Below are positions 3,328 to 18,202 of a stretch of 64,000 bases of DNA, in pieces; the stretch's first letter is position 1; the number at the start of each line of letters is the position of its first letter. The notes beneath the pieces are model-generated. The model saw only the letters and a list, made by a program, of their open reading frames with translations, was not told the origin of the DNA and searched no databases. The position numbers were made by a program, and so were the translations under genes. The DNA is taken from contig JAHITX010000014.1 of assembly GCA_018817425.1 (NCBI GenBank), forward strand, positions 62,001 through 126,000, in the 5' to 3' direction. Origin of the DNA: Pseudomonadota bacterium (GTDB lineage: Bacteria > Desulfobacterota > Desulfobacteria > Desulfobacterales > RPRI01).

Positions 3328-4299
3328 TTAGCCATTTCCTATTAGAGGTGGTTGCAACTGGTTCGGCGGGAGTCCGATCTGCTGATGCTGTGGGGGCCCT
3401 GCCATAATTATTTGCTGCGCTTGTAGTATGAAAGCCATACCGTTTTGATTTTCAATGATTTTAAAGGCGGGTGTACTGGAAAGTGTGTGGAAGTAAATAT
3501 GATGGACAGATAAGACCTTGTCTTGGAGTTCCTGATCTGATTCTAAATCGAACACCTTCAGCCCCATTTCTTTACACTTTTCAGAGGACAAATGCCGATT
3601 ATGCGCAAGGCTCACAGAGTGGTCACCAAGTTCTCGCATAATGTTGTCAACTACAGAATCCGCATCGGCGAGGCTTCTAAACATATTTCTTTTTAGCCAT
3701 GCATGAACCAGGCTATTTGACCACTTAACCGCTTTTTCGCATTCTCCTATGAACGCCGGTGCATATTTCGCAATTATTGGTTGCCATACCGGTATTGTGC
3801 GCGGGTCGGCAACTATCTCATTATATGCACGTTGAAATTCCTCTATGACCCCATGCGCCGGTATTCCATTAAACTGTGGATCAACCGGCCCAAGTGATGA
3901 TTGCTTTCCCATCCAGATTTCACGACATGAACAAGCGATCATTGTCCCAGCTGACATTGCCATTTGTGGAACAAAGCATCTAACATCTCCTGAGAATTTG
4001 CTCCATAGGTAGTCCACAATGGACTCCGTTGCGGCGGTATCACCACCAGGGGTATGCAGAATTAGATCAAGACCCTTTTTCACATCCACCCCGTTAATGG
4101 TTGTCATTAATCCATTCTTGTCTGTGTCATTTACAGCTACCGCTGGACCCAATTCTGGCTTCTGTAGCCACCCACTATAATAGCAAATCACATTTCTCTT
4201 CGTATATTGAGATAGGTCAGCGATGTACTTTCGACGAAGAATATCAAAGGGACTTCCGAGTTGTCCTATTTCTCTTACTAATTCTGACCAATTAGGCAT
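3328..4299 (-). CDS. ClpP-class serine protease, SDH_sah (serine dehydrogenase proteinase) family
   Basis: This 323-residue protein belongs to the SppA/ClpP-fold SDH proteinase family. Family motifs are clear: LHTPGGDTAATESI at about 82-94, the nucleophile-containing AMSAGTM (Ser116), and the conserved SLGPVDPQ at about 135-142. I see no signal peptide or strong membrane segment, so it is probably a cytosolic peptidase. It overlaps the upstream 60-residue gene by 8 nt, and together with the 238-residue gene forms a small unit next to the DarTG-methylase operon. A defence role (for example as a protease effector) is inference from position. It could instead be a passenger. Confidence 0.75.
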   Translation of the reverse strand: MPNWSELVREIGQLGSPFDILRRKYIADLSQYTKRNVICYYSGWLQKPELGPAVAVNDTDKNGLMTTINGVDVKKGLDLILHTPGGDTAATESIVDYLWSKFSGDVRCFVPQMAMSAGTMIACSCREIWMGKQSSLGPVDPQFNGIPAHGVIEEFQRAYNEIVADPRTIPVWQPIIAKYAPAFIGECEKAVKWSNSLVHAWLKRNMFRSLADADSVVDNIMRELGDHSVSLAHNRHLSSEKCKEMGLKVFDLESDQELQDKVLSVHHIYFHTLSSTPAFKIIENQNGMAFILQAQQIIMAGPPQHQQIGLPPNQLQPPLIGNG

Positions 4300-4552: not shown

Positions 4553-5269
4553 TTATATTTGTCTGACCGCGTAGTTTTCTGCTTTTTTATATGTATCTTG
4601 AAGTGTTTTTGGTAACAAACTCAAAATTGCTTCTTTTAAATAGTTTTTAGCAGCCTCCCCACCCTTGCGGTCACTGAATTGCCATCCATTTGCATTTTCG
4701 TTTGTTGCAGAGTATCGAATAATATCCTCGAAAAATGATCGGACGGATGTAAAAGCTTTATCACGATTCATAATTTCAAGATTGCAGACTATCGCACTAT
4801 TAATATTTAGTTTGTCATCTATAGGCGGGCTTACATCAAGAAGTAGTAACTCATTTTCACCGCTGTACCGCCACGTCGTGGTTTTTTCAAATTCATTTAG
4901 CACATAGACAAAAGCTTGATCACTGTAGTACCATGCCATCCCATCAATTGAAGCAACAACCTGCTGATCTTGGTATAGACCTTCTGGCCAAAAGTTTCCG
5001 TAACCACAACAGAAGAAATTAATATGCTTACCAGATCTATGATGGAAATAATTCAAGTTTAAAAGGATTTCGTTTTTACAAAAAATAGTATTCGGATTAC
5101 AGAATATAACACCAATAAAATTATGACGTTTTACTTTTTTATTAATTTCAGCCATAGCATTTCTTGAAACAGGATCGACTGAATCATAAAAAGTTATTCG
5201 CATTGAAGCCTTTTTAAGGTCATCATTGACTATATTTAAAATGTGTTGAAAAGAAATTGCTTCAATCAC
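4553..5269 (-). CDS. Hypothetical protein (238 aa) of the defence island
   Basis: I do not recognise this protein. It is soluble, with alternating hydrophobic strands and aromatic clusters (FIGVIFCNPNTIF, HINFFCCGYGNFWPEG) and a helical C-terminus (YLKEAILSLLPKTLQDTY). There is no signal peptide. Its DNA is more AT-rich than the helicase-methylase operon just upstream. It is the first gene of a three-gene minus-strand unit with its own likely promoter at 5370-5398, followed after 78 nt by the 60-residue gene. It might be a sensor or effector of the protease module, but nothing in the sequence proves that. Confidence 0.6.
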   Translation of the reverse strand: MIEAISFQHILNIVNDDLKKASMRITFYDSVDPVSRNAMAEINKKVKRHNFIGVIFCNPNTIFCKNEILLNLNYFHHRSGKHINFFCCGYGNFWPEGLYQDQQVVASIDGMAWYYSDQAFVYVLNEFEKTTTWRYSGENELLLLDVSPPIDDKLNINSAIVCNLEIMNRDKAFTSVRSFFEDIIRYSATNENANGWQFSDRKGGEAAKNYLKEAILSLLPKTLQDTYKKAENYAVRQI

Positions 5270-5440: not shown

Positions 5441-8146
5441 TTACCAAGGGACCGAAAGTCGATCCACAACATCCCTCCGTGCCAAAACCCGTGAGCATAA
5501 CTCCCAACGATCTTTATCCGGGTCAATAGTTTCCTGATACCTCATTTCAAATACATTGCGAGCTTGTTGGCGAAGATGGATATATTCGTCCATCATTTCC
5601 TCCAGCTTTTCAATGCTTTCAATCCAGTCGTCTTCGATAGTGTCCGGCAGGCCGCCAAAGATATCATAGCGGTCTTTCATGCGGCGAGAAATAACCTGGT
5701 ACACCTTTTCATCCTGGGTCTCGTGATAAACCAGATTGAGCATATCCACTGTGCGCCGCGCCTGACCGAACCGTTTAATACGCCCCAGCCGCTGTTCCAG
5801 CCGCGACGGATTCCAAGGCAAATCAATATTTATAAGGGTGCCGAGAGTTTGAAGGTTCAGCCCTTCGCAGGCGGCATCGGTTGCCACGACCAGACGAATT
5901 TCACGTTTCTTTACTGCGTTTTTAATTTCCTCTCTTTCGACGGATGCGAACTCGTTTCCGCGAAATATTCCGCTCTTCCCCGTGCCTGCGTAGACACCCA
6001 CTGGCTCGTCAGACAGAGATTTTGCCAGATCCTCGCCTACAGCGTATACGGTATCGTAGTATTGGCTAAAGACAATACAGCCATGCTCAAGCCAGGTCTT
6101 TCCATCTGTGCGATGTTCTGTTAGAAAATACCGAACTGCGGTGAGCTTAGGATCACGGGCTTCGGAACGTGACAGCTCATCCACAATAGTATGAAGATGC
6201 ATTGCCTCTTCAGCCGTGAGCGCACTCAATGTGTCTGCCACCAACCTCATTTGTTCTTCATCCTCAAAAGTTTCGCATCGCAACATTTTTTCCGCCGTAG
6301 ATCGACCCGAAGCAAAACTCGAACAAATCCGCTGCAGGAGTAACGTCTTCATGAATCCGGAAGCCTTTGTCCCTTTTTTATTAAGGGCAGCAGTGAAAGC
6401 TTCGGCTGCTTTGTAAGCAAGATCAAAGGGAAGGTTTGTCAGAAGACCGAGGCCACTAAATCCCACTCTACTATATGCTGTAGCCGAAGTATCCGGGTCC
6501 GGGTAAATATCCACACCGACCTTCTCCAGTAAGCCGGCCTCTTCCAGTGTCTGTCTGCGTCGAAGCACGGTATGACGTACGATGGGATTGTGATCGCGAA
6601 GAAAATCGGGCGCAAGAGCTTGACCGACCGCTTGCCGTTCCAGAAAGCCTAAAGATCCGAATCCACGATCCGTAAAAAAAGTATTATCAGATAGACCAAG
6701 TTGCAGTCGCAGCGATGCAAACAGTGCATCTTCAGTTACCGGTGGAAGTGGATTTTGAAGCCATTCCCAGGCTTCCTTCTCATCTGCCGGAATCTCCGTG
6801 CCTTTTACAATAGGGAGTGCTTTCTCACAATCCAACCAATGACCGAAAGGTTCGCGGCCAAGCACGACATCTGCACCAGCATTGAGAATATGCATAAGAT
6901 CCCAAAGTTCATGCACCTCTGTCTGAATGGGAGTTGCCGTCCCAAGCAAAAGGTTTTTGGTGCGAGGACCGATCTGTAGCATAAAATCAAGCAGTTTGTT
7001 CGGATTATTCTTCTTCTGGCCCAATGTGCCATGACGGCGAGCCTTGTGGGCCTCATCCAGAATAACTGTTCCGTATTTGCGTTCAAGCAGATGCCTACGT
7101 TCTTCAGAACCGTGGACGATCAGACCGGTAGATACGATTGCGATGCGAAAAGGGCAGCGTGCGATGTCTTCGGCCCCGCGCGTCTTTATAATATGCCCCT
7201 TTGGATCAACCCATACTTTCTTCGTTGACAACCAAACCGCGCTCGGTATGCCGAGTTTATCAGTCAGCTCTACTTGCCATTGCAATGTGAGGGTTGAGGG
7301 GCACAGGATAAGCACAGGACCATCTTCCAGGAGTGCAGATAGCATGGCGCTTGCGGCAAGTGACAATGTTTTACCAACACCCACCTCGTCAGCCAGCAGT
7401 AAACGGGCTTTGCCGTAAATTTCCCGGTGCTGTAAAAACATAGTTACAAATGAGCGTTGCCAGGGCTGAAGCTGTTCACCACCGCGATAAATGGGACTTT
7501 CGGCGAGGGCAGCCGCAGCTAATTCTCCAGATTTTGCCTCCTCGAAGCGGATCTCCACGCGATCGGCAACGCGTTTGATTTCTTCTATAATGGCATCCGG
7601 CAGCGGATAACCGTCCTGCCAGAGGGCGGCAAACTCCTCTTCGACCCAGGCAACGCCTTCCGGCGACGGATCTTCCCACAGGATTTCATAGTTCTGATTA
7701 AAAGCACTCTTGGTTTCGTTTATGGAGCCAAGAAAACAGGTTTTACTGCCGTCGGATGCTTCGATAACCCCTGCCTTGCCGTGAACAAAAACCCTGTCTT
7801 TGGGTACGACTCTGATCTCCACGCGGCCACTGGTCAGCAGCTCATGGAGTCGGCGGTAGCGCTCACGGTGCAATAGAGCCTCAACCTCAGCATGGGCCTC
7901 GTTCCAACGCTCCTTGAGCCCTGTTTCGCGCACATGCTTTGACACTGCCACATCGGCCGCGTCAAGCTCACTGTTACAGACAATCTGCACATTAGGGATA
8001 GATGCAATCTCTTCGCCAACCAGCTCAAAAATTGAACTGCGGAAATATCCGGCAATGCGCTTATAGGATTTTGCCCCCCGAAGCCGATCAGCAAGAAAGG
8101 CATGATCGAGCCGCCGGCGGCGAGAGGAAAAACGGTTGATAGTCAT
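5441..8146 (-). CDS. PLD-domain SNF2-type DNA/RNA helicase (last gene of defence operon)
   Basis: A large ATPase of about 901 residues. The N-terminal 200 residues contain a phospholipase D-like HxK motif (His122-Gly-Lys124) followed by FLGSINETKSAFNQNYE. The SF2/SNF2 core follows: DEVGVGKTLS (Lys259), DEAH (364-367), GTATPIQ, TDAACEGLNLQ, and RLEQRLGRIKRFGQ near the C-terminus. Only one HxK motif is obvious, so nuclease activity would need dimerisation or may be lost. I choose the ATG at 8146, not 8170, because it gives a 4-nt ATGA overlap with darG like the other operon junctions. In the defence operon it probably translocates on or remodels invading DNA, by analogy with other helicase-methylase systems. 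Confidence 0.85.
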   Translation of the reverse strand: MTINRFSSRRRRLDHAFLADRLRGAKSYKRIAGYFRSSIFELVGEEIASIPNVQIVCNSELDAADVAVSKHVRETGLKERWNEAHAEVEALLHRERYRRLHELLTSGRVEIRVVPKDRVFVHGKAGVIEASDGSKTCFLGSINETKSAFNQNYEILWEDPSPEGVAWVEEEFAALWQDGYPLPDAIIEEIKRVADRVEIRFEEAKSGELAAAALAESPIYRGGEQLQPWQRSFVTMFLQHREIYGKARLLLADEVGVGKTLSLAASAMLSALLEDGPVLILCPSTLTLQWQVELTDKLGIPSAVWLSTKKVWVDPKGHIIKTRGAEDIARCPFRIAIVSTGLIVHGSEERRHLLERKYGTVILDEAHKARRHGTLGQKKNNPNKLLDFMLQIGPRTKNLLLGTATPIQTEVHELWDLMHILNAGADVVLGREPFGHWLDCEKALPIVKGTEIPADEKEAWEWLQNPLPPVTEDALFASLRLQLGLSDNTFFTDRGFGSLGFLERQAVGQALAPDFLRDHNPIVRHTVLRRRQTLEEAGLLEKVGVDIYPDPDTSATAYSRVGFSGLGLLTNLPFDLAYKAAEAFTAALNKKGTKASGFMKTLLLQRICSSFASGRSTAEKMLRCETFEDEEQMRLVADTLSALTAEEAMHLHTIVDELSRSEARDPKLTAVRYFLTEHRTDGKTWLEHGCIVFSQYYDTVYAVGEDLAKSLSDEPVGVYAGTGKSGIFRGNEFASVEREEIKNAVKKREIRLVVATDAACEGLNLQTLGTLINIDLPWNPSRLEQRLGRIKRFGQARRTVDMLNLVYHETQDEKVYQVISRRMKDRYDIFGGLPDTIEDDWIESIEKLEEMMDEYIHLRQQARNVFEMRYQETIDPDKDRWELCSRVLARRDVVDRLSVPW

Positions 8147-9195
8147 AACGTCTGAGTGTGTTGTAGCCATTCTTTACGTTTCAGGATATCCCAGGCAAGC
8201 CTGATATGCTTTTCCTGAAACATTCGCTTGCGGTTATTCCAACTGTATGTTTTGCTGATTGCCTCATCTGCTGTTGCAGCACCTTCGCGATTTGCTACCC
8301 AGTGGACAGTAGATAAAAGTTCCATGCCGAATGGTGTTTCAAATCCTGAAATGAGATCCACAACACTTTGAAAATGTTTCAGAGTGGAAGGATGATCTTC
8401 AAGAAAACTTTCTGCCTGAGCAAGAACATCGGGAAGCAGATTTATCTGCCGCTCCGGATTATCTTCTGCGTCGCCGTACCCGGTTATGAAGTGTCCTTCC
8501 ATAAGTGACAATACATGGCGCAGGTTCTGCGCATATGGTCCATAAGGTCCTTTGTTGTACTGAAGTTTTAACCCCTCTCCCGCTTCCTGCATAAAATACA
8601 TCAATTTGTGGATCTCCAGAAGAGTCACAAAAGGGTTCATGACCGCCGCAAGATAACGACGCATCAAAACAAGCAGTGCTGCCCGACCGACAGTCAAATC
8701 CGGTGTCTTTTTGGAATGAGCCATTATTTCAGGAAGAGGCGCTCCTTTAGGTTCATAGAGCAAAACCCGCACATCAGTCAAATCCTTAAAAGCCGCCTCA
8801 ATTCTGGCCCGCACATCAGCCCAGTGCAAACCGCCAAGACCGCAACCAAGCGGTGGGATGGCAATGGAATGGATACTCCTTTTACGCACCTCGGTCACAA
8901 GGGCCTGCAACCCAACTTCTATGTCTTCCATCCGGCTTTTGCCTTTCCAATGGCGTTTGGTTGGGAAGTTGACCACATAACGGGGATTATAAAGCCGGTT
9001 GAGATCATAGATGAGCATCTTGCCCGGCTGTAGTTCCTTCTTGTCGCATACCGCCTTATAACGTTTGAAATTATCAGGAAATCTATTCTTGAACTGGAGA
9101 GCAATTCCGCGGCCCATGACCCCGACACAGTTAACGGTGTTCACCAGCGCTTGGGCATCAGCCTGTAGTATGTCGCCTTGTGTCAATTCAATCAT
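8143..9195 (-). CDS. darG: DarG antitoxin: macrodomain DNA ADP-ribosylglycohydrolase
   Basis: DarG reverses and binds DarT. The N-terminal 155 residues are a macrodomain (TQGDILQADAQALVNTVN, then GVMGRGIALQFK and IPPLGCGLGGLHW). The catalytic lysine of DarG proteins is present at Lys80 in NFPTKRHWK, so hydrolase activity is expected. The C-terminal 190 residues match the DarG toxin-binding region (HKLMYFMQEAGEGLKLQYNK, then GPYGPYAQNLRHVL). At 350 residues the length is normal for full DarG. It lies 18 nt after darT and overlaps the helicase start by 4 nt, so the antitoxin is translationally tied to the defence operon and is not a stand-alone pair. Confidence 0.92.
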   Translation of the reverse strand: MIELTQGDILQADAQALVNTVNCVGVMGRGIALQFKNRFPDNFKRYKAVCDKKELQPGKMLIYDLNRLYNPRYVVNFPTKRHWKGKSRMEDIEVGLQALVTEVRKRSIHSIAIPPLGCGLGGLHWADVRARIEAAFKDLTDVRVLLYEPKGAPLPEIMAHSKKTPDLTVGRAALLVLMRRYLAAVMNPFVTLLEIHKLMYFMQEAGEGLKLQYNKGPYGPYAQNLRHVLSLMEGHFITGYGDAEDNPERQINLLPDVLAQAESFLEDHPSTLKHFQSVVDLISGFETPFGMELLSTVHWVANREGAATADEAISKTYSWNNRKRMFQEKHIRLAWDILKRKEWLQHTQTL

Positions 9196-9213
9196 GTGTG
9201 CCTCCTTTTATAT

Positions 9214-9864
9214 CTAAAAATACCATGTTTTTTCAATATCCACAACCGGTTTATGCCGGGCATTTTTGAGAATGGCGTTGACTTGATTGAGAACCTTTTC
9301 ATTCAATACCCCGACCTTTTCCACCAGATGCCAGGGGCATACATCATGGATCAGGAATTCAGCCTGTTTCCCTTCCTGTATCTGCATATCACGAAAATCT
9401 GTTGCCATTACCGCATTCCAGTCAATTTTTTCCAAGTCCGTTAAGTCATTAAAAAAGTCGGCAAGATACCCACCGGCATTCCGGTCGGTAAATGCCCAGC
9501 GTACATTATTTTCATTTGCCCATCGTATGCTTGAGAGCATGTCCATCTGCAAATGCAGAATCGGTTCCTGACCGCCACGATAGCTCATATCCGGGTGATT
9601 ATTCTTGTAAATTATAAATAACATGATTGAACGGGGGCAGAAATAAAACGGTACATATTCACCGACCCTGGTGTGTGGATGACAATGCGCCTCGATCTCA
9701 AATAACCGTCTTCGCTTGATATCGGTCATGCCAATAGATGTCTGGTCACCACCCATCCCGATACGTCGGCCATCCGCTTCTATAAAACCGGCCGCTGCAA
9801 TGGAAGCCAGGTTGTCAACGTGAGTGATATGATAGATTTTCGGTTGGGCCGGTGGTGTTGTCAT
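9214..9864 (-). CDS. darT: DarT toxin: DNA ADP-ribosyltransferase (DUF4433)
   Basis: DarT attaches ADP-ribose to bases of single-stranded DNA and blocks replication; in E. coli, DarTG modules abort phage infection. The 216-residue protein opens with the family start KIYHITHVDNLASIAAAGF. It has the conserved arginine at position 51 (TDIKRRR) and the likely catalytic glutamate at 169 (KQAEFLI), which match the known R51 and E160/E170 residues. No inactivating lesion is visible. It begins 11 nt after the methylase stop. The toxin sits before its antitoxin and inside a six-gene operon, so dosage depends on the whole transcript. Confidence 0.92.
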   Translation of the reverse strand: MTTPPAQPKIYHITHVDNLASIAAAGFIEADGRRIGMGGDQTSIGMTDIKRRRLFEIEAHCHPHTRVGEYVPFYFCPRSIMLFIIYKNNHPDMSYRGGQEPILHLQMDMLSSIRWANENNVRWAFTDRNAGGYLADFFNDLTDLEKIDWNAVMATDFRDMQIQEGKQAEFLIHDVCPWHLVEKVGVLNEKVLNQVNAILKNARHKPVVDIEKTWYF

Positions 9865-9875
9865 GCAATCCTCAC

Positions 9876-12800
9876 TTATCCCAATCGCTGATTTTTGACC
9901 AGCTCCCTGAGCACCCTTGCGGCGCTGGCTTCTTCCGGACGAAGTTCTTCGAGGCGCTTGGCCAGGTAGTCGGCCAGCTCCACTGCCAAATCGCGCTGGG
10001 TCATGTCGCCATAATAGTTTGGAATATTTAAAGTAAGGTGAGACAGAACCTCGCTGCCGTCCATGTTATTCTCCAACTCCATCAAGGCATAGAGCACAGC
10101 ACGTAACACAGACATATACAGTTCCGAGCCCTCACCCATCTCAGACTTGCCGAAATCCATTGCACTCTTGAGGCGCGCATCGTTTGCCTTATAACTGGCC
10201 AGCAGTGGCTTAAAGTCGCGCACTTTGAAGGCCTTAGCAAAATTCTGGTAGTTGTCCAGGGTTTTGGCTCCGCGGGATTCCATGTCTATCATTTTAAGAT
10301 AGAAGCGTTCTGCTCCGCTGAGCTTGTCCCAGTGGTTCTTGGGAATCCCTTGAGGGACCAGGCACTGGTTGGCGGTATCCACTGCAAAGGCTATAAGGCT
10401 ATCCACAAAGGTGGTTTCACCCTTTACACGTGGTCGTATCGCCTCGGTGGTCATATCGTGGCCGTCGATCACGGCGTAACGGGTAAGAACGCGCAGTGCC
10501 GCTGCGTAACCAGCCATCTGGATATCGGCATCTTCGAAAACATTCTCATCGCGGTAGAGGCCTTTAGCTTCCTGATTAAGACCGGTAAGCGACTGCACCT
10601 GTGCTTCAACTTCCTCCTGGATTTCCCAAGCCAGATCATCACGCGTAGTCTTGTGGGAACCCTGGCGTTTTCTGCAGACGAGCAGTACCGTGCCTTTGAT
10701 ATAGTTGGTGTCTTCCTGGATTCGTTTCATTGTTTCTGTCACGACATACCAAGCAGCGGTTACTTGCAGGCCTGAGGCCCAAACGATATTGGCCATATCA
10801 GCCCATATAGAGCCAGACTGGTGGGTAAACATGATGACCTGCAGACCGTTTTCGGCCATATTCTCGGTCATGCGCTTGTAGGAGGCTACCATCCTTCGCC
10901 TAAATTCCTCGTCCTCACCCTTAATGGCGAGCGAGCGACGACTATCCCAGACCCAGTTTGAAAACTCTGGAGGCGGGTTCTTGCGAAGCCAAGCGATAAA
11001 GTACTCAAAGATTTCCTCATACTTCACTGCATCCCCATAGGGTGGATCTGTTATATATATGTCGTTCTCGATTTCAAGCTGATCTGCTGGCAAACAAAGC
11101 ACTTGGTTTTTTACAGACGAGGCAATTGGAAAGAACTTGTGCTCTGTTTTCAGTAGGTTTGCTGCAGATGCAGAAGCTCTACAGGCATAGTTTAACAATG
11201 GGTTGAGCGCTTGGTTGTCAAACACACCAGCTGTTCCACCGCCTCCACCAGCTTGAGGTCGCCATCTCGTCAAACGTGAACAGTTGTTCAGCATCTGGGT
11301 GAGTCCAAACTTCAAACCTGCGTCGCTTAGCTGATTAACCAACCCAGCCAATAACAACTGCCGTGGATTAAACATGTGATGCCAGAATGTCCAGCCACGC
11401 GTGCGAATTGGCTCGTCTGTTTTGTTGCCAGGCTCGATACGCATATCCGGCACCAAACCTTTGTCCTGCCAATCAGTGAGGTGTTCAGCTATAAAATTTT
11501 CGACAACGCTTTCGCGTTTCAAATCGTCGAATGTAACTTCGCGAAACTCGTAGTCATAGCCTTTACCCTTCTTTTTTGGACGCATCCATTGCACACAGTA
11601 AAGGCGCTCCTGGAAGATATCTTCTGGCCGTGGCTTGAAGTCGTGCTTCTCCCAAAGGCGCAAGAGGTTGTCGTTAGTGCCATCATTCTTGCGAAAGTCT
11701 TTGCGCAGTGTCGAGATCTTTGTACGGTATTTAGTTCCATCGACGGTATGGATTAGGTAAGGATCATGCCCGCGTCCGTCGGTGCGTACGGTGCCTTCCG
11801 TAGCATCAGCCAGTTCTTTATCAGTTACCCCAGAATGGATGGCAATGTCATAGCGTTTGTGCTTAGCATCCGGCACCATCTTAGCAACAATACCGTAGGC
11901 ATTGCTCACAATCAGCGTCGGTAAGAGAGGCACCGTCCAACCGCTCTGCGGGCAGCGGACTTCTACGCAGTATAAAAATACCTTGGCGCGCCAGCCCTTG
12001 CCGTCTGTCTCGATGCCAAGCTCGTCCATCTTCAGCTGCACAAGGCTCACGATTGACTGCTGGTCCTTCACTATTTTTTTGCGATTTACTTCAGAACCAC
12101 CGACAATGTTGAAGGCCCCCCAGGTGAGCATGCACGCCACCGGGTTGAGATCAGAGGCATAGACGTCGCAACCAAGTCGAGCTGCCTCAAAAGGGATCTG
12201 GCCAGAGCCGCAGAAGGTGTCAGCCACACGCGGCTTGTGGCCAAAACGCATAATTCCGAGTTGTTCGACTAGATCCTGGAAAGATTGGGCATGTGTGCCG
12301 AGGTGTGCGTTAATCGCATCCCAGATATGGTCATGAACTGTCTCCATTACCTCCTCTGGTCGCTGGGCTTGATTTACACGCTCTATGTAGGATGTTCTTG
12401 GCAACATCTGCACCTCCAACCGACGGCGATCAAGAATGCTGATGTCATTGCGCCACGAAACTTTTACCTTATCGTAATCCGGATTTGACCAGTCTACCGG
12501 TGCAGAATTTGGTAAAATTCCTTCTAAATTAGTAATAAAATAATCGGAGATAGAGGAGATAGATAGAGTACCTATAATTTCCTTTGGCTTGGGTTTGCGC
12601 TTCCAACGTACAGAGAATGATTCGTCGTCCATAGCCATCAGTTTCTCAAAGATTTCCAGGTCACGCGCTGCATCATTAGTTGCCGGCAGCAGGCAGCTAA
12701 GAATGCAGGCCTTGGCTAAAATGAGCGGTTTCCGACCCTTCCAGTAACCCCCTAAAGATACGAGCGTTTGGCCATGACTTGACATCCTTTCAGCATATAC

Positions 12801-12887
12801 CTCAGCTGAGAGTTTCTGAACAGGCAGTAACCGTTCAATCAAGGCCGGGGCATCTTTCAAAGAAAATGGGATTATAGCTTCTCTCAT
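9876..12887 (-). CDS. DUF1156/COG1743 adenine-specific DNA methyltransferase
   Basis: A 1003-residue methylase. The N-terminal DUF1156 region is followed by the AdoMet motif VADTFCGSGQIPFEAARLG (about 221-239) and ASDLNPVA. The catalytic motif DPPY is at 614-617, as expected for amino-group (N6-adenine type) methylation. Long inserts lie between these motifs; one has a CPQSGWTVPLL segment in the place of the family's zinc-ribbon-like knuckle. The gene overlaps the DUF3780 gene by 4 nt and ends 11 nt before darT. It probably marks host DNA so that the other operon products spare it. Whether it modifies DNA alone cannot be seen. Confidence 0.88.
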   Translation of the reverse strand: MREAIIPFSLKDAPALIERLLPVQKLSAEVYAERMSSHGQTLVSLGGYWKGRKPLILAKACILSCLLPATNDAARDLEIFEKLMAMDDESFSVRWKRKPKPKEIIGTLSISSISDYFITNLEGILPNSAPVDWSNPDYDKVKVSWRNDISILDRRRLEVQMLPRTSYIERVNQAQRPEEVMETVHDHIWDAINAHLGTHAQSFQDLVEQLGIMRFGHKPRVADTFCGSGQIPFEAARLGCDVYASDLNPVACMLTWGAFNIVGGSEVNRKKIVKDQQSIVSLVQLKMDELGIETDGKGWRAKVFLYCVEVRCPQSGWTVPLLPTLIVSNAYGIVAKMVPDAKHKRYDIAIHSGVTDKELADATEGTVRTDGRGHDPYLIHTVDGTKYRTKISTLRKDFRKNDGTNDNLLRLWEKHDFKPRPEDIFQERLYCVQWMRPKKKGKGYDYEFREVTFDDLKRESVVENFIAEHLTDWQDKGLVPDMRIEPGNKTDEPIRTRGWTFWHHMFNPRQLLLAGLVNQLSDAGLKFGLTQMLNNCSRLTRWRPQAGGGGGTAGVFDNQALNPLLNYACRASASAANLLKTEHKFFPIASSVKNQVLCLPADQLEIENDIYITDPPYGDAVKYEEIFEYFIAWLRKNPPPEFSNWVWDSRRSLAIKGEDEEFRRRMVASYKRMTENMAENGLQVIMFTHQSGSIWADMANIVWASGLQVTAAWYVVTETMKRIQEDTNYIKGTVLLVCRKRQGSHKTTRDDLAWEIQEEVEAQVQSLTGLNQEAKGLYRDENVFEDADIQMAGYAAALRVLTRYAVIDGHDMTTEAIRPRVKGETTFVDSLIAFAVDTANQCLVPQGIPKNHWDKLSGAERFYLKMIDMESRGAKTLDNYQNFAKAFKVRDFKPLLASYKANDARLKSAMDFGKSEMGEGSELYMSVLRAVLYALMELENNMDGSEVLSHLTLNIPNYYGDMTQRDLAVELADYLAKRLEELRPEEASAARVLRELVKNQRLG

Positions 12888-13462
12888 TTCAAATCCTTGA
12901 ACAAAGGTAACTCAAACAAATCTTCCTGCCGGGGTCTGGGACGGCGTTTCCTTCCGGAAGCCGGTTTCTCGCCATCGGAAAGAGCATGAAATAACGCACG
13001 CCGCCAACCGCGCTGACCATCCTCTGGCAAGCCAGCTTCGGCAACAGTCATGGAAAATAACCACCAGCGCTCCTCGGGACGCAAAGCCGCCCATTTGCTG
13101 CAAATAACACGGATCTGCTCAGAATTAGCGGTTTCCGCAGCCCATGCGAGCACACACAATTCCTTGCCGAGAAGCCGGTCCACCAGGTTTGTGCCTGTAT
13201 GCCAACGACCTACCGAGACTTTCACAGCCTTAAGCCTTGTGTTGAATTCACGACGGGAAATATCGGCAATTGCAGACCAGACCGGACGCTTTAAAACCAC
13301 CCGCTCCTCATCGCGCGGGATACCGGCCTCCTGGCCTTGGTAGCCGTAATCCTCGACAATCACGACGGACTCATTTTTTGCCGCCGGGATTTCAATGCGA
13401 AAGACATGAGCACCGAACTTTTCAGGAGCGCCAAAATCAATAGTTTTGAGCCTTTCGGTCAT
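12884..13462 (-). CDS. DUF3780 family protein
   Basis: A 192-residue soluble protein without membrane or signal sequence. It starts TERLKTIDFGAPEKFGAHVF and contains the segment RPEERWWLFSMTVAEAG, which I assign to DUF3780. That family is found mostly between DUF499 ATPases and DUF1156 methylases. It overlaps both neighbours by 4 nt (ATGA), so the three proteins are probably made in fixed ratio. Its activity is unknown. A linker or specificity role for the ATPase-methylase complex is inference. Confidence 0.75.
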   Translation of the reverse strand: MTERLKTIDFGAPEKFGAHVFRIEIPAAKNESVVIVEDYGYQGQEAGIPRDEERVVLKRPVWSAIADISRREFNTRLKAVKVSVGRWHTGTNLVDRLLGKELCVLAWAAETANSEQIRVICSKWAALRPEERWWLFSMTVAEAGLPEDGQRGWRRALFHALSDGEKPASGRKRRPRPRQEDLFELPLFKDLK

Positions 13463-16400
13463 TGTTCTACATCACCTGGCTTTAGTTCAATACCAAGCTT
13501 GGAAGCAAAATTCTTGAGGTCATGCCCGGAGACAAAGTGAGCCTTGCGAAATGTTAATGTCACCGGAGTTTCCGGTGTAAACTTTTCCAGCACTTTATTG
13601 AGCAATGCCTCAAGAAACGCTGCATCCACTTCAATCTCTCCAACGTTGACAGCAATCATGTGGTTCCCCTGGCCCACGGTGAGAACGATGCCCTCAAGTG
13701 TGGCAGACTTTTCAGCAGCCTGCTTTAAACCCTCAAAGGTCTTGGCGCGCGAGTCCAGTTTGCGTCCGGTTCGGGATATGAGGAAAGCGGGCTTTAACTC
13801 GTCAATCTGTATACCCTTTTTCCCTTTGGCAGGGAAGCGGAAATCGGTCTTGGTTTCGATCCCTCCCGCCTCAGCAAATGCGCGCAGCAAAACATCGCCG
13901 TCACCGATTGGGATCGGGCCTTCGTAAACCGTTCCCTCACGTGGTTCGCTGCCATCGAGGGTATAATTAATCGTTCCTTTGGGTGCGACAAATAATTCTA
14001 CATAACGTTTGCTGTCCTTTTCAGAGAGTTTATTACGCAAAACCAGCTTGTTGGACCAGGTTAACGGATCGCCGGTCTCATACTGGCCTGACGGATCACA
14101 CACCAGAAAGTTCACCTTCAACGCGGCAGTGGTATAAGCCTGGTCTTTAAGTTGCGGACTGGACTCGCTGACCGGTGTGTCTTCGGAAAAGTAAATTTTT
14201 GGCGCCGGACCGGCATTCTGCGGATTGATGCGAAGACGAACCTTGCCTTCGTCATCAGGCTCAGTTTCTGCGATAACCTGAACCGAGGTTCGTTTTCTTT
14301 TTGGTTTTTTTGTAACATAACCATTTCCGAGGTCTTCCCACAGTCCGCGATTACATGCTATGGATTTGAGAGTATCCAGCCCCTTGGGTGGTAGCCATGA
14401 CATACCGGCCTGTTCAAAATATCGGTCAGCTGCATCAGTCCAGCGGGTATCATCCTGATTCTCTGGCCAGAGAAGATCCTGAGCCTTGTCTCTGATAGCA
14501 TCGAATTCCTTTTCTACGTCAAGATAAAGCTTCAGAGGGTTGGACGTAAGTGTCTTTTCAATCTGCTCCTCACCATTAAAGGATTTGGTGGCATCTCGGG
14601 TCATATCCAGAGCTTTGGTGGCAAGCTGGGCACATTTACCCGCCCGATGAATTGGGAAGAGCACCTTATCAAACAAGCCGAGGATAGTGGAATTGAAATC
14701 CTGTTCATAGGTTTGTTGCTTCCGTTCGAGGTCTTCCCTCTGAGGATGACCTTGGGGAATGCGGCCATCGGCCTTTTGCGCGGCAAAAAGCTGGCGTGCG
14801 GCTTTTTCCACACTGCCCATGGCGGTTTTATCACCGGTGAGAACACATAGGTTATTCTTCTGGCTCAGTCCTTCAAAAAATTTCTGGACTTCCTCCGGTG
14901 GAATCTTCGAGTCCGGGCTAACCACCAGCAAAACACGCCCTCTACGGACTCTGTCTGCAACATCTTCCAGCTTCGGCAGAGGCAGGACATCTTCGTAACA
15001 TGTCTTGCGCATTGGTTTGAACATCTCCTTCAAGCGGTGCCGGATGAGTTCTTCGATCTGGTTTTCAGACGCATCGTGAGCAAGGCTTTGAAGAAGTTTA
15101 GTGAGGTTTTCCTGCCGGTCAAAGTAATAGCGGCCTTCCGGAGTGTGATGCACATACCAGGCTACTTTTTCTAATTCTTCGAAGGCTGTCAGAAATTCTG
15201 ACGGTTCCCGTAAAGGCGAAACAAGACATTCAACCATCTCCTCACGGGTAAGACCTTTGACGGCATTAACGGCAGTGGAAAGGCTGGCACTGAGAAGCAG
15301 AGCGCCGATCTGGGTGGCTGCTTCCTTGCCGGTCTGGAGGTCTATTATTTGGGCATGAGCCGATTGCTGCGCATCCCAAAGATCTTTTGCTATGACATCA
15401 CGCATGCCGGAAAATTCGGTCAGCTTGTCGCGAACCTCCTGGATGGAGAGGTCAAAATGCTGGGGACCAATTAGAAACACATCGTTGGCGCTGCGGTCCC
15501 AGACCGACCTGAGCAGGCGTGAGACTAGTTCAATCAGACCACGCGTCTGTTTAAATTGCTCATTTTCTTTGAAAAGTGCAATAATATTCTTAAGCCGCGG
15601 ATGAAAGGGATAGGTTGCCGAGATCTCATCGGATACCGCTTCTGCGCCTCTGCTTGCAGTCTTTGACTTTGCAGCCTCTTCCAGCTTTCGACCGAAGGCC
15701 TCTGCAATGTCCCCGATTTCGGCTTCATCAGGAAGAGACTTGAAAAGACGCTTGCGTAAAATATCGTAAATTTCATTGGCGGCGAGGTCGACCGGCGTGA
15801 TGTTACGTTCCTGGCGGCCAAGTTCGGCACGTGCATCCTGAAGTGCGCGATTGATAAGTTTTCCACCTGTGTCGTAGGCAGCAGTGAGGTCGGAGATAAC
15901 AACGCAAACATTGTTTTTTTTACCGGCAGCTGTCAACAGGTTAGCGAATGCGCGGGTGGCGATGTCAGCAACCGTGCCGTTTCCTACCTTCTGGGTATCG
16001 AGGTAATGGAAGTACGGCGGCATCTCATCAAGTAAAATGAGAACGGGCTGGTCTCCCTCAAAGAGCTTGATCCAGTCCTTTTCGTCAGGGGCCTTGGGAC
16101 CACTCGTCCAGAAGGCCTTGAATTGATCTCCTTTACCAATTTGGTTGGCTATCTCTCCCCAAAAGAAGCTATCCGGATTATTACGGCCATTAAAGGCCCC
16201 AATGCCGGCGGTTTTAAAAGCGGATATGTTCGGAAGCTCTGCACAGTATTTTTTTCGAAGTTCCGAATGCTTGGCAAGAAGACCGAATCCGACCAGAAGG
16301 TGGGTTTTACCACCGCCCATGGCTTGCTTTAGGTGAAAGATGGCCTGAGATGATGTCCCTGTCAGCCTGGCAATGCCTTCATTGATCAGGTCCTGCATGC

Positions 16401-16542
16401 CCTGTGTTATATAGGTCTTTTCGAAAAAAGCCGCACCATTTCCCTCTGCGTTAATCAATTCATCGAGCTGTTCGATCTGGTCGCTGAGCTTAATGGTCAG
16501 TGCATTCGGCTGTAGTTGGCAAGCATCACGAACGGTTTTCAT
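13459..16542 (-). CDS. DUF499/COG1483 AAA-type ATPase (first gene of defence operon)
   Basis: A 1027-residue predicted ATPase. Walker A is AMGGGKTH (about 74-81) and Walker B is PVLILLDEMPPY with Asp172-Glu173. The C-terminal third has a small beta-sandwich-like motif (YTLDGSEPREGTVYEGPI), which resembles chitobiase/FN3-associated C-terminal modules. COG1483 ATPases are known to pair with COG1743 methylases and helicases in defence neighbourhoods. The start is supported by AAGGA eight bases before the ATG. It is the first gene after the island's AT-rich leader and probably acts as the energy-dependent sensor or motor. Confidence 0.88.
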   Translation of the reverse strand: MKTVRDACQLQPNALTIKLSDQIEQLDELINAEGNGAAFFEKTYITQGMQDLINEGIARLTGTSSQAIFHLKQAMGGGKTHLLVGFGLLAKHSELRKKYCAELPNISAFKTAGIGAFNGRNNPDSFFWGEIANQIGKGDQFKAFWTSGPKAPDEKDWIKLFEGDQPVLILLDEMPPYFHYLDTQKVGNGTVADIATRAFANLLTAAGKKNNVCVVISDLTAAYDTGGKLINRALQDARAELGRQERNITPVDLAANEIYDILRKRLFKSLPDEAEIGDIAEAFGRKLEEAAKSKTASRGAEAVSDEISATYPFHPRLKNIIALFKENEQFKQTRGLIELVSRLLRSVWDRSANDVFLIGPQHFDLSIQEVRDKLTEFSGMRDVIAKDLWDAQQSAHAQIIDLQTGKEAATQIGALLLSASLSTAVNAVKGLTREEMVECLVSPLREPSEFLTAFEELEKVAWYVHHTPEGRYYFDRQENLTKLLQSLAHDASENQIEELIRHRLKEMFKPMRKTCYEDVLPLPKLEDVADRVRRGRVLLVVSPDSKIPPEEVQKFFEGLSQKNNLCVLTGDKTAMGSVEKAARQLFAAQKADGRIPQGHPQREDLERKQQTYEQDFNSTILGLFDKVLFPIHRAGKCAQLATKALDMTRDATKSFNGEEQIEKTLTSNPLKLYLDVEKEFDAIRDKAQDLLWPENQDDTRWTDAADRYFEQAGMSWLPPKGLDTLKSIACNRGLWEDLGNGYVTKKPKRKRTSVQVIAETEPDDEGKVRLRINPQNAGPAPKIYFSEDTPVSESSPQLKDQAYTTAALKVNFLVCDPSGQYETGDPLTWSNKLVLRNKLSEKDSKRYVELFVAPKGTINYTLDGSEPREGTVYEGPIPIGDGDVLLRAFAEAGGIETKTDFRFPAKGKKGIQIDELKPAFLISRTGRKLDSRAKTFEGLKQAAEKSATLEGIVLTVGQGNHMIAVNVGEIEVDAAFLEALLNKVLEKFTPETPVTLTFRKAHFVSGHDLKNFASKLGIELKPGDVEQ

Positions 16543-16568
16543 TTCAATTGTCCTTATTAGGATTATCT

Positions 16569-16574
16569 ATTATA
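16569..16574 (-). promoter_or_regulatory. Candidate -10 box of the defence operon
   Basis: A perfect TATAAT on the minus strand lies 27 nt before the DUF499 start, just upstream of its ribosome binding site AAGGA. No good -35 is found at 17 nt, so the promoter may be weak or may depend on an activator. Confidence 0.35.
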
Positions 16575-17123
16575 GCTGGGGGTGGCAGTTCTTTATTAAA
16601 CGTCCTGTGGAACATCCTTCAATAATTAAATAACTCTAATACTTATTTTACCACAGGCATACTCTCGAAAAAGTCATAAAAAACCCCTGCTATTTGGTTT
16701 GAACAACGTGTTTAAATAGCATAGGATCATACAATTCACCTAATATGATGTTTTTATATAAGTTTCGAGTGGAATTCGTATCATGAAAATTATTTTTTTT
16801 CCATCTTTTAATGATCGTAAATTTTGATTGGGTCTATTTTTTTTTAAATCGAGTTTCTTAGCAATAGTTTGAATAAAATTATTTTCAGTTATCTATCATA
16901 GCGTATCTGATAACTACTAATTTTTTTTCAGATATCTTTCCATAACCACAAGGTATCAACCGCTCAGAAAACCTGTGATATGTCTGTATGTACGAAACAA
17001 TGAGAATTGAATCTTGCACACTTGTTTATGACCCTGAAATCTATTCGGGATTGATTTTACTGAGCCTGTTTGTCCTCTTTATATCCAGTTTAATGGACAT
17101 ATCCCAAATGTTTCCATGAGGCA

Positions 17124-17342
17124 TTATTGGGGCATTTCCTTTTTACTTCCATAATGATTGCCCAAAATAGCAAGATAGATATCGCACCGCTCAACCTCAT
17201 TCAGATATATATCGTCGGGCTTGCGGTCTTTGGCAGGAATATCTTCGAACAGAAACACATTGGATATGAACCGGCGAAGAAGAGGATCATGGGCAATGAA
17301 CTCTTTAACCGCACGGCGTTCCTCTGCGAGTTCTTTTTTAGG
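17124..17342 (-). pseudogene. Remnant of a DUF4062-domain protein
   Basis: The minus strand stays open for 73 codons and reads as the core of a DUF4062 domain: KKELAEERRAVKEFIAHD, then FLFEDIPAKDRKPDDIYL and EVERCDIYLAILGNHYG. It lacks the usual N-terminal start (VFISSVQ type) and stops right after HYGSKKEMPQ, where intact proteins continue with further domains such as AlbA/Schlafen or ATPase modules. DUF4062 proteins are common in defence islands. This is a broken relic of an earlier gene on the island's edge. Confidence 0.75.
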
Positions 17343-17498
17343 ATGATTTATTATATTGATTTTTTTTATAATCGGGTATTAGATTTAACACAATATGGCC
17401 ATTATATAGTTGCAGGCGCTCACTCAATACAGCACGGTCATTAGTAAATAAATTGTTTCTTGACTATCAGCATATAATTTAGCCGGTATATAAAGCAA

Positions 17499-18188
17499 AT
17501 GCGAATATGGGATATAAGTCCGGGATATTTAAATAACCAAAGTCTTCTTGGAGAACATCGCGAGCTTCATGCAATCGTTTCTATCATAAGCAATAACAAG
17601 AAGGGCTATGCACGTCATCCGGAAACTTTACGCTGGAAATCATTTGGATGGGCGCTTTCAAAGCGGCATTCTCTTTTAGTTTCCGAAATGAGTTTAAGAA
17701 ATTTTAAGCACCATACTCCGGTTGATCTTCTATCTGCAAAAGACATTTGGCCTGATACTTTTATTGATTCCCCGGGTTCTCAATTTGGTCTTCTAAAAAA
17801 TAAATACATAGACCGCTCCCCCGGAAGAATACCTCTTCCCCGAAATACAAAAGAGTTATGGGCGCATCATAAATATTCCGTTATGGCCAGAAACCCGGGT
17901 TTATATAAATTAATAGGTAAAAAAATATCAAAATTTAAAAAATATGAAGGATTCAATGAGCTTGCTTTAGAATTGACTGAAATACTTCGAATCCGGCCTG
18001 CGACCGGAAATCTGAAAAATACTACAGATCATATGTGGGGGTATGTTTCCGGCAATTTGACCAACAGGGGCACAGACTCTATGAGTTTAAATGAAATACT
18101 ATCGGAAATCCAACGTTTGGCAATTATGTATAAAGAACCGTATTTAATGGCTTCCACGGCGTTGAGCGAATTGAGATCATGGCTATAA
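17499..18188 (+). CDS. Pyrimidine-dimer DNA glycosylase (T4 endonuclease V family) fused to DUF1722
   Basis: The first 105 residues match the Pyr_excise family of T4 endonuclease V. The segment SLLGEHRELHAI carries the Arg-Glu pair that corresponds to Arg22 and catalytic Glu23 of the phage enzyme. Residues about 115-229 match DUF1722/YbgA (ELWAHHKYSVMARNPGLYKL, then RPATGNLKNTTDHMWGYV). The phage enzyme uses the amine of Thr2; here residue 2 is Arg, so the nucleophile may differ or be the processed N-terminus. The fusion suggests base-excision repair of UV damage. It converges with fliW, leaving 14 nt between them, and its composition resembles the flagellar DNA. Confidence 0.8.
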   Translation: MRIWDISPGYLNNQSLLGEHRELHAIVSIISNNKKGYARHPETLRWKSFGWALSKRHSLLVSEMSLRNFKHHTPVDLLSAKDIWPDTFIDSPGSQFGLLKNKYIDRSPGRIPLPRNTKELWAHHKYSVMARNPGLYKLIGKKISKFKKYEGFNELALELTEILRIRPATGNLKNTTDHMWGYVSGNLTNRGTDSMSLNEILSEIQRLAIMYKEPYLMASTALSELRSWL

Positions 18189-18202
18189 ACATTAAGAAAA
18201 GT

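What the first reader, a model, noticed from the sequence alone, without database searches (positions are those of the whole stretch)
5441..16542. A complete DarTG toxin-antitoxin pair built into a methylase-ATPase-helicase defence operon
Six genes on one strand are tied by 4-nt overlaps or gaps of at most 18 nt: DUF499 ATPase, DUF3780, DUF1156 methylase, DarT, DarG, PLD/SNF2 helicase. COG1483-COG1743-helicase loci are known from defence surveys, and DarTG is a known phage-defence module. Here DarT (Arg51, Glu169) and DarG (Lys80) both keep their key residues and are located between the methylase and the helicase, so they are part of the same transcript. A possible logic is that the methylase marks self DNA, the ATPase-helicase detects foreign DNA, and DarT is a DNA-modifying effector that DarG restrains until infection. 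The logic is inference.
Basis: partly seen in the sequence, partly recalled or inferred. Interest (0 to 1): 0.88.

Follow-up and report, generated by a model that had tools for sequence, protein, structure and literature searches.

The report
Toxin pair inside a restriction-like operon
A DNA-tagging toxin and its antidote sit between the methylase and helicase genes of a known restriction-like phage-defence operon, in a slot where related bacteria keep other weapons; this layout recurs and arose more than once, but what wiring it implies is untested.

Summary
The six-gene operon is real and its genes are intact. Its core (DUF499 ATPase, DUF3780, DUF1156 methylase, PLD-SNF2 helicase) matches the published "Type-2 BREX-Related" (BR) system; the insert is a full-length DarT-DarG pair. 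On the DarT tree these positions fall in three separate places, so recruitment happened at least three times. Both internal junctions are cargo slots: other loci carry Schlafen-like proteins, PIN toxins, MNT-HepT, GmrSD or AbiJ there. DarTG also sits inside Hma operons (in one, DarG is fused to the methylase) and, as published for EPEC, inside Type I R-M operons, including that of a close DarT relative. Best reading: DarTG is an exchangeable second-layer, abortive effector expressed with an R-M-like core. That the core triggers DarT is not shown. DarTG embedded in Type I R-M was known; DarTG in BR operons was not found in my searches, which could not reach preprints or supplements. New variant of a known kind.

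The parts
13459..16542 (-). DUF499 AAA+ ATPase, 1027 aa; Walker A (GGGKT at residue 76), Walker B-like LLDE at 170; Fn3/CHB_HEX_C_1 domain at 844-895
   Evidence: NF042962 1509 bits; PADLOC DUF499 1643 bits; Pfam; motifs
12884..13462 (-). DUF3780 protein, 192 aa, the gene specific to Type-2 BR systems
   Evidence: NF042961 245 bits; PF12635; PMC12839542 passages
9876..12887 (-). DUF1156 N6-adenine methyltransferase, 1003 aa; FCGSG at residue 225 and DPPY at 614; middle part diverged between otherwise close operons
   Evidence: NF042963 1294 bits; motifs; sliding identity
9214..9864 (-). DarT toxin, 216 aa, DNA ADP-ribosyltransferase; Arg52, Arg53 and Glu169 kept; slot B, 11 nt after the methylase
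   Evidence: NF048013 224 bits, PF14487 full length; alignment to 7omv
8143..9195 (-). DarG antitoxin, 350 aa; macrodomain with Lys80 plus C-terminal part that matches the DarG chain of 7yk3; AGGAGG ribosome site before its ATG
   Evidence: NF048014 462 bits; Lys80; sequence around 9196-9210
5441..8170 (-). PLD-like nuclease plus SNF2 helicase, 909 aa; HxKx4E at residue 130, DEVGVGKT, DEAH
   Evidence: NF042964 1237 bits; Pfam PLDc_2, SNF2, Helicase_C; motifs
17148..17339 (-). remnant of the N-terminal (DUF4062-type) part of a Schlafen-type cargo gene, upstream of the operon; same family as the commonest slot-B cargo elsewhere. Not claimed as a working part
   Evidence: 58-62% identity to seven slot-B cargo proteins, E down to 4e-25; DUF4062 named in one of them, L048

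Best explanation
A Type-2 BREX-Related, R-M-like system whose methylase-helicase junction is a cargo slot filled by a DarTG toxin-antitoxin pair. Inferred: the methylase marks self DNA, and the ATPase and helicase-nuclease attack unmarked DNA. DarT is made from the same transcript and held by DarG. When infection upsets that balance (loss or titration of DarG, shut-off of host expression, or an excess of replicating single-stranded phage DNA), DarT ADP-ribosylates DNA and stops replication, as an abortive second layer behind restriction. Shown: gene order, intact residues, recurrence at three positions, separate DarT lineages, purifying selection. Not shown: co-transcription, defence activity, any trigger.
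For: Core identity matches the published Type-2 BR definition. DarTG at the same junction in L022, L023, L046, L047, L049, L052; between DUF3780 and methylase in L039, L132, L133, L134, and before the methylase in L273, whose upstream part is cut off; after the helicase in L072. Separate places on a 67-row DarT tree. Inserts of 600 nt or more: 29 of 86 readable at methylase-helicase, 19 of 113 at DUF3780-methylase, 2 of 122 at DUF499-DUF3780. Alternative cargo identified is largely toxin or nuclease modules. Median dN/dS among seven slot-B loci: DarT 0.12, DarG 0.09, core genes 0.04-0.085. DarTG of this kind is embedded in Type I R-M too, and the EPEC example protects against phages as a whole island.
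Against: All slot-B cases are in Desulfobacterota-type genomes and one DarT group, so they are one recruitment with later spread. darT is not strictly tied to the core: the DUF499 tree puts the window with L046 and L047, the DarT tree with L022. dS is close to saturation (median pS 0.59-0.75). Nothing here separates an independent second layer from coupling or addiction.
Confidence: 0.6

Rival explanations
1. Guard coupling in the manner of PrrC: the BR complex itself keeps DarT or DarG in check, and DarT is released when a phage inhibits the complex. DarT would then be a trap for anti-restriction proteins.
For: PrrC is silenced by the physically associated, genetically linked EcoprrI and activated by phage T4 Stp (PMC2610378, passages). 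DarTG sits in comparable positions in Type I R-M, Type-2 BR and Hma. In one Hma operon a DarG-type macrodomain with a DprA-like domain is one reading frame with the methylase (L203, 1425 aa).
Against: DarTG works alone as a toxin-antitoxin pair (known from the literature); six plasmids carry copies without R-M genes directly beside them, and 13 of 27 DarT loci examined in the order show no such genes. The fusion is one genome. The insertion position varies, so no fixed neighbour is needed.
Confidence: 0.2
2. Addiction cargo: DarTG mainly makes loss of the operon costly and is retained for itself.
For: L198 lost DUF3780 and most of the methylase by an in-frame deletion, with a shortened helicase, but keeps DarT and DarG full length. 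L049 has a stop in its aligned helicase stretch with DarTG open. PIN/VapBC-like and MNT-HepT pairs occupy the same slots elsewhere.
Against: L202 shows the opposite, a decayed DarTG with no BR genes recognised nearby. Much cargo in the slots is not a toxin-antitoxin pair (Schlafen-type, GmrSD, DUF1016). Both broken loci could be assembly errors.
Confidence: 0.17
3. One reading: DarT is the main effector and the ATPase-helicase is its sensor.
For: Position inside the operon; DarT acts on single-stranded DNA, which a helicase could expose (recalled).
Against: Most core operons seen lack DarTG, and the helicase carries a PLD nuclease-like domain of its own.
Confidence: 0.03

Closest known systems
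Type-2 BREX-Related (BR) systems (Rakesh and Krishnan 2026, PMC12839542; outline, passages, section 35 part 1 of 2 and section 40 seen)
   Same: DUF499 ATPase, stand-alone DUF3780, DUF1156 N6-methylase, HKD-SNF2 helicase, Fn3-like domain in the ATPase
   Different: Its main text has no match for DarT, DUF4433 or ADP-ribos; the auxiliaries it describes in the parts I read are nucleases; its supplements were not read
RRDM island of EPEC: DarTG2 embedded between hsdS and hsdR of a Type I R-M system (PMC12255303, abstract and passages)
   Same: DarTG between a modification gene and the restriction/translocase gene; the slot holds another gene pair in four genomes
   Different: Core here is Type-2 BR, not Hsd; no RptR repressor recognised; no experimental data here
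PrrC-EcoprrI (PMC2610378, passages)
   Same: A toxin gene linked to an R-M operon as a second defence line
   Different: PrrC is a tRNA nuclease without a separate antitoxin (recalled); control by the R-M enzyme is shown there, not here
Guilt-by-embedding / Hma-embedded candidates (Payne et al. 2024 preprint, not held; seen only as cited in PMC12255303 and PMC12988326)
   Same: Defence modules embedded in other defence operons, Hma included
   Different: I could not see whether DarTG or DUF3780 operons are listed there

Membership tests
Type-2 BR system | DUF499 ATPase, DUF1156 methylase and helicase in one locus | tested here: met
Type-2 BR system | stand-alone DUF3780 gene in the core | tested here: met
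   245 bits, NF042961
Type-2 BR system | HKD/PLD nuclease domain at the helicase N-terminus | tested here: met
   PLDc_2 at 29-184; motif reads HxKx4E, with E also in 57 of 87 helicases scanned, D in one
Type-2 BR system | Fn3-like domain before the ATPase C-terminus (53% of taxa in the paper) | tested here: met
   CHB_HEX_C_1 and Fn3_assoc at 844-895
Type-2 BR system | C-terminal RRM fold in DUF499; no TUDOR in helicase | not tested
   no structure was predicted
Type-2 BR system | phage restriction | not testable with these tools
   needs plating assays
DarTG | full-length DarT domain with conserved Arg and Glu | tested here: met
DarTG | DarG macrodomain with Lys80 and C-terminal part | tested here: met
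   residues 168-336 match 7yk3 chain B
DarTG | DNA ADP-ribosylation reversed by DarG | not testable with these tools
   biochemistry needed; a thymidine (DarT2-type) target is inferred from closeness to 7omv and the PF14487 name
RRDM-type island (Type I R-M plus DarTG) | HsdM, HsdS, HsdR flanking DarTG | tested here: not met
   flanks are DUF1156 and PLD helicase
RRDM-type island (Type I R-M plus DarTG) | upstream RptR repressor of 79 aa | tested here: inconclusive
   no minus-strand ORF of 80 aa or more from 16543 to 18202, a limit that would miss it
PrrC-type guard | toxin silenced by the R-M complex, freed by its inhibition | not testable with these tools
   needs interaction and activation assays

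The most novel reading that the evidence does not exclude
Embedding is a general rule, not a set of accidents: DarTG is repeatedly wired into modification-based defence (Type I R-M, Type-2 BR, Hma, and perhaps Type III and a methylase-S-SMC-HerA operon) as a guard that senses failure or inhibition of the modification/restriction complex, with DarG or its Hma counterpart physically tied to the methylase, so that disabling restriction releases DNA ADP-ribosylation.
Probability: 0.22. Interest if true: 0.82.

Novelty: new variant of a known kind. Interest (0 to 1): 0.56.

Why it matters
It adds a non-nuclease, DNA-modifying effector to the repertoire of BR systems, shows two exchangeable cargo slots in their operon, and links BR and Type I R-M through related DarT toxins in equivalent positions. 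If the core controls DarT, it would resemble PrrC: a restriction system that guards itself with a latent toxin, and phage inhibitors of BR systems could then be found by screening for DarT release.

Tried and rejected
One-genome accident: rejected by recurrence. A pseudogenised insert: rejected, frames open and residues kept. Downstream genes (238-aa ORF 4553-5269, SDH protease 3328-4299) and the upstream Pyr_excise gene as parts of the system: rejected, no relative of them in any other locus held. A DarG-methylase fusion as a general feature: sought in IMG/VR with the L203 DarG part; of five relatives none shows an Hma methylase with my queries, though L267 is only 1386 bases long; it stays a single case. 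Promoter and terminator scan: chance level. Phage records: one DarT relative, in a Thermus phage, of 50,697 records, not followed.

Caveats on counts: the 80 genome-contig loci are the best of 251 relatives, so they lean towards the window's own kind. Only exact copies over a 250-base stretch of DUF3780 were removed; near-identical IMG/VR loci remain among the 131. Many loci are cut off by contig ends. Context of 15 of the 42 DarT matches was not examined, and context of non-BR DarT loci was read by tblastn with a few query proteins, so 'none recognised' is not 'none present'. No control with another toxin family was run, so part of the R-M link may be ordinary clustering of defence genes. The DUF499 tree is a quick one with long-branch warnings; its counts are minima and cannot tell gain from loss. 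Searches used aligned tblastn stretches, not curated gene starts. Rows dropped: four DarT stretches with internal stops (L156, L170, L201, L174), stretches under 450 bases, and copies (99 down to 67); loci with incomplete DUF499 or unreadable slot B (131 down to 75); saturated pairs (usable 9 to 21 of 21 by gene), and the helicase figure includes pairs with L049, whose stretch has a stop.
Full report
What is there. Six minus-strand genes fill 5441-16542. Pfam, PADLOC and NCBIfam name them DUF499 ATPase, DUF3780, DUF1156 methylase, DarT, DarG and PLD-SNF2 helicase, all above NCBIfam equivalog cut-offs. Junctions are two 4-nt overlaps, gaps of 11 and 18 nt and one 28-nt overlap. ATPase, methylase and helicase motifs are present. 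DarT aligns almost end to end (3-216) with the solved chain 7omv, and DarG's two halves with solved DarG chains. Glu169 and Lys80 are right; the conserved arginines are window 52 and 53 rather than 51. The window lies on a 171,804-base contig of a 5.12-Mb genome. A genome of the same order, G057, has DUF3780 on a 108,571-base contig at the place where the plasmid of Desulfosarcina sp. BuS5, of the same length, has it, so I take the order to be Desulfobacterales (the placement of that genus is recalled).

The core is known. A 2026 survey (PMC12839542; outline, passages, section 35 part 1 of 2 and section 40 seen) defines Type-2 BREX-Related systems by these four genes, in 1120 taxa. Its main text has no DarT or ADP-ribosylation; the auxiliary effectors I read of are nucleases. 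An earlier paper notes COG1743-DUF499-SNF2 operons near PIN-GNAT-EVE toxins (PMC7641849, passages).

How often DarTG is inside. DUF3780 was found in 24 of 389 genomes of the order; 23 of these 24 loci were fetched, of which 14 show the methylase-helicase junction, and three of these, the window, L022 and L023, carry DarTG there. In a phylum sample 7 of 395 genomes have DUF3780, all fetched; the window and L039 carry DarTG, L039 between DUF3780 and the methylase. A scan of GTDB contigs gave 251 relatives, best 80 kept; six carry DarTG at the methylase-helicase junction (L046, L047, L049, L052, and L053 and L119, which repeat L023 and L022) and one, L072, 62 nt after the helicase. IMG/VR gave 28 DUF3780 loci, three with DarTG between DUF3780 and methylase (L132-L134). 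After removal of five exact repeats, 131 loci with DUF3780 remain; 86 have both internal slots readable, and 11 of the 86 (window included) hold DarTG in one of them.

Slots. Inserts of at least 600 nt occur in 29 of 86 readable methylase-helicase junctions, 19 of 113 DUF3780-methylase junctions and 2 of 122 DUF499-DUF3780 junctions. Thirty cargo proteins were scanned with Pfam. The commonest cargo is a BLAST cluster of twelve proteins of 476-573 aa, eleven of them at the methylase-helicase junction; the three scanned have Schlafen-AlbA or DUF4062 plus HATPase_c_4 domains. Others: PIN toxins with small partners, MNT-HepT, DUF1016 (YhcG), GmrSD, AbiJ, DUF3800, an OLD-like ATPase; also less weapon-like inserts (an IS1 transposase, a second methylase set in L043, Uma2, AAA_14/DUF4143) and three with no family. 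L049 carries PIN/VapBC-like genes and DarTG together; L023, mostly above 90% alike in DNA, has only antitoxin-like scraps in that slot. A fragment of the Schlafen-type cargo family lies upstream of the window's own operon (17148-17339).

Separate recruitments. On a 67-row DarT tree the seven methylase-helicase DarTs form one supported group (99/99) with the deletion derivative L198 and the orphan remnant L202; the four DUF3780-methylase DarTs then in hand another (97/97); L072 lies elsewhere. So at least three recruitments into Type-2 BR. The next branches below the window's group are L223 (G112) and L222 (G239). L223's context (L258) is HsdM-HsdS-DarT-DarG-HsdR, the last cut off by the contig end; L222's (L259) shows none of my query genes. 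So a close relative of the window's DarTG occupies the equivalent slot of a Type I system. On a quick 75-row DUF499 tree, DarTG presence needs at least 4 changes and slot-B cargo states at least 21.

Maintenance. Among seven slot-B loci median dN/dS is 0.12 (DarT), 0.09 (DarG), 0.08 (DUF3780), 0.085 (DUF1156), 0.06 (helicase), 0.04 (DUF499), on the pairs that were not saturated. Window and L047 are mostly 77-89% alike in DNA, but 55-73% in the methylase's middle part; their darTG stretch is 72-85%, lowest in darT. In L046 a part of the helicase also differs (67-76% to the window). darT is not strictly tied to the backbone: the DUF499 tree puts the window with L046 and L047, the DarT tree puts it with L022, so some exchange within the group is likely. 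The pair stays in place while methylase specificity, cargo and even darT alleles change.

Other operons. With DarG alone as query, 14 IMG/VR loci were found: four are Type-2 BR with DarTG before the methylase (three already known; L273 is new, its upstream part cut off, 93% alike in DNA to L132), four are HsdM-HsdS-DarT-DarG-HsdR (the HsdM of L269 is cut off), six show none of my query genes, four of them cut off close to DarTG. Of 27 DarT loci examined in the order (of 42 matches), 14 lie in or beside modification-restriction operons: four Type-2 BR (one a deletion derivative), three Hma, three Type I (one partial, one adjacent), three with Methylase_S, SMC and DndE/HerA-like genes (L197 by Pfam, L196 and L201 by likeness to it; L201 keeps only a scrap of the S gene and no recognised methylase), one beside Type III mod-res. 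In the other 13 none was recognised beyond a 35-residue HsdR scrap in L191. The three Hma operons have DarT with an HD domain and DarG with a DprA-like domain between HmaA and HmaB (Pfam on two of the three, the third by 94-99% identity); in L203 DarG-DprA and HmaB are one 1425-aa frame whose methylase part starts with HmaB's own conserved start. In L207, compared with L204, HmaA, DarT, DarG and HmaC are 94-99% identical but HmaB only 76%.

Mechanism. Three readings fit: an independent second layer, a guard released when the core is inhibited, and addiction cargo. Interchangeability of cargo and the many DarTG-free operons favour the first; embedding in three kinds of methylase operon and the L203 fusion leave the second open; L198 and L049, which keep DarTG after damage to the core, speak for some addiction, and L202, where DarTG decayed, against. 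PrrC-EcoprrI is the known example of a guard (PMC2610378, passages); EPEC's DarTG2-in-Type-I island restricts phages as a whole (PMC12255303, passages).

Novelty. Paper searches: DarTG with DUF1156, none; DUF3780, one paper, PMC12839542; DarTG with embedded, operon and others, nine, listing only; DarT, DarG, restriction-modification and BREX, three, two of them opened for passages; HmaABC or DUF499, six, two opened; DarTG, type I restriction or hsdS, 373 of which 15 listed; DUF4433 with methyltransferase, helicase and operon, one, not opened; embedding terms, 13, PMC12988326 opened for passages, with no DarT; DarTG, embedded and Hma, six, only PMC12255303 opened. No passage that I saw reports DarTG in DUF499-DUF3780 operons. 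The library lacks preprints and most subscription journals, and supplements were not read, so this is 'not found', not 'absent'. The concept of embedding is known. Hence a new variant of a known kind.

Noticed in passing
L203:1893-6170 (-), with L204, L207, L211, L212: Hma operons carry DarT fused to an HD domain and DarG fused to a DprA-like domain between HmaA and HmaB; in L203 DarG-DprA and the methylase are one 1425-aa frame.
   Followed up: partly
window 17148-17339 (-): Remnant of the N-terminal part of a Schlafen-type protein of the family that fills the methylase-helicase slot in other BR operons; hints at cargo turnover around this operon.
   Followed up: partly
L198:3629-9378 (-): A Type-2 BR operon with an in-frame deletion: DUF499 N-terminal part joined to the methylase C-terminal part in one 527-aa frame, DUF3780 gone, helicase 818 aa, DarT and DarG full length.
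   Followed up: partly
L196, L197, L201: Shared operon: N6-methylase with HSDR_N, Methylase_S, DarT, DarG, small ORFs, SMC-like ATPase, DndE/HerA-like ATPase; in L201 only a scrap of S and no methylase was recognised. May be another modification system with DarTG inside.
   Followed up: no
L188:1516-8672 (+): Type III mod and res genes followed by DarT and DarG on the same strand.
   Followed up: no
window 9876-12887; L207 versus L204 HmaB: The methylase's middle part differs sharply between otherwise close operons, both in Type-2 BR and in Hma, while DarTG stays in place.
   Followed up: partly
window 9214-9864: DarT and DUF499 trees disagree about the window's nearest relative (L022 against L046/L047), which suggests exchange of darT alleles within the slot-B group.
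   Followed up: no
window 5441-8170: The PLD motif of the helicase reads HxKx4E rather than HxKx4D; E in 57 of 87 relatives scanned, D in one.
   Followed up: partly
L023 and L049, slot between DUF3780 and methylase: Two operons mostly above 90% alike in DNA differ here: open PIN/VapBC-like genes in L049, only antitoxin-like scraps in L023. L049 also has a stop in its aligned helicase stretch.
   Followed up: partly
L202:4336-6291: Orphan DarTG remnant close to the window's (69% and 86%), DarT shortened and DarG split, no BR genes recognised nearby.
   Followed up: partly
L152:13773-15325: Slot-B cargo with an HTH/MqsA-like and a SecB-like protein (weak Pfam scores), which suggests a toxin-antitoxin-chaperone set.
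   Followed up: no
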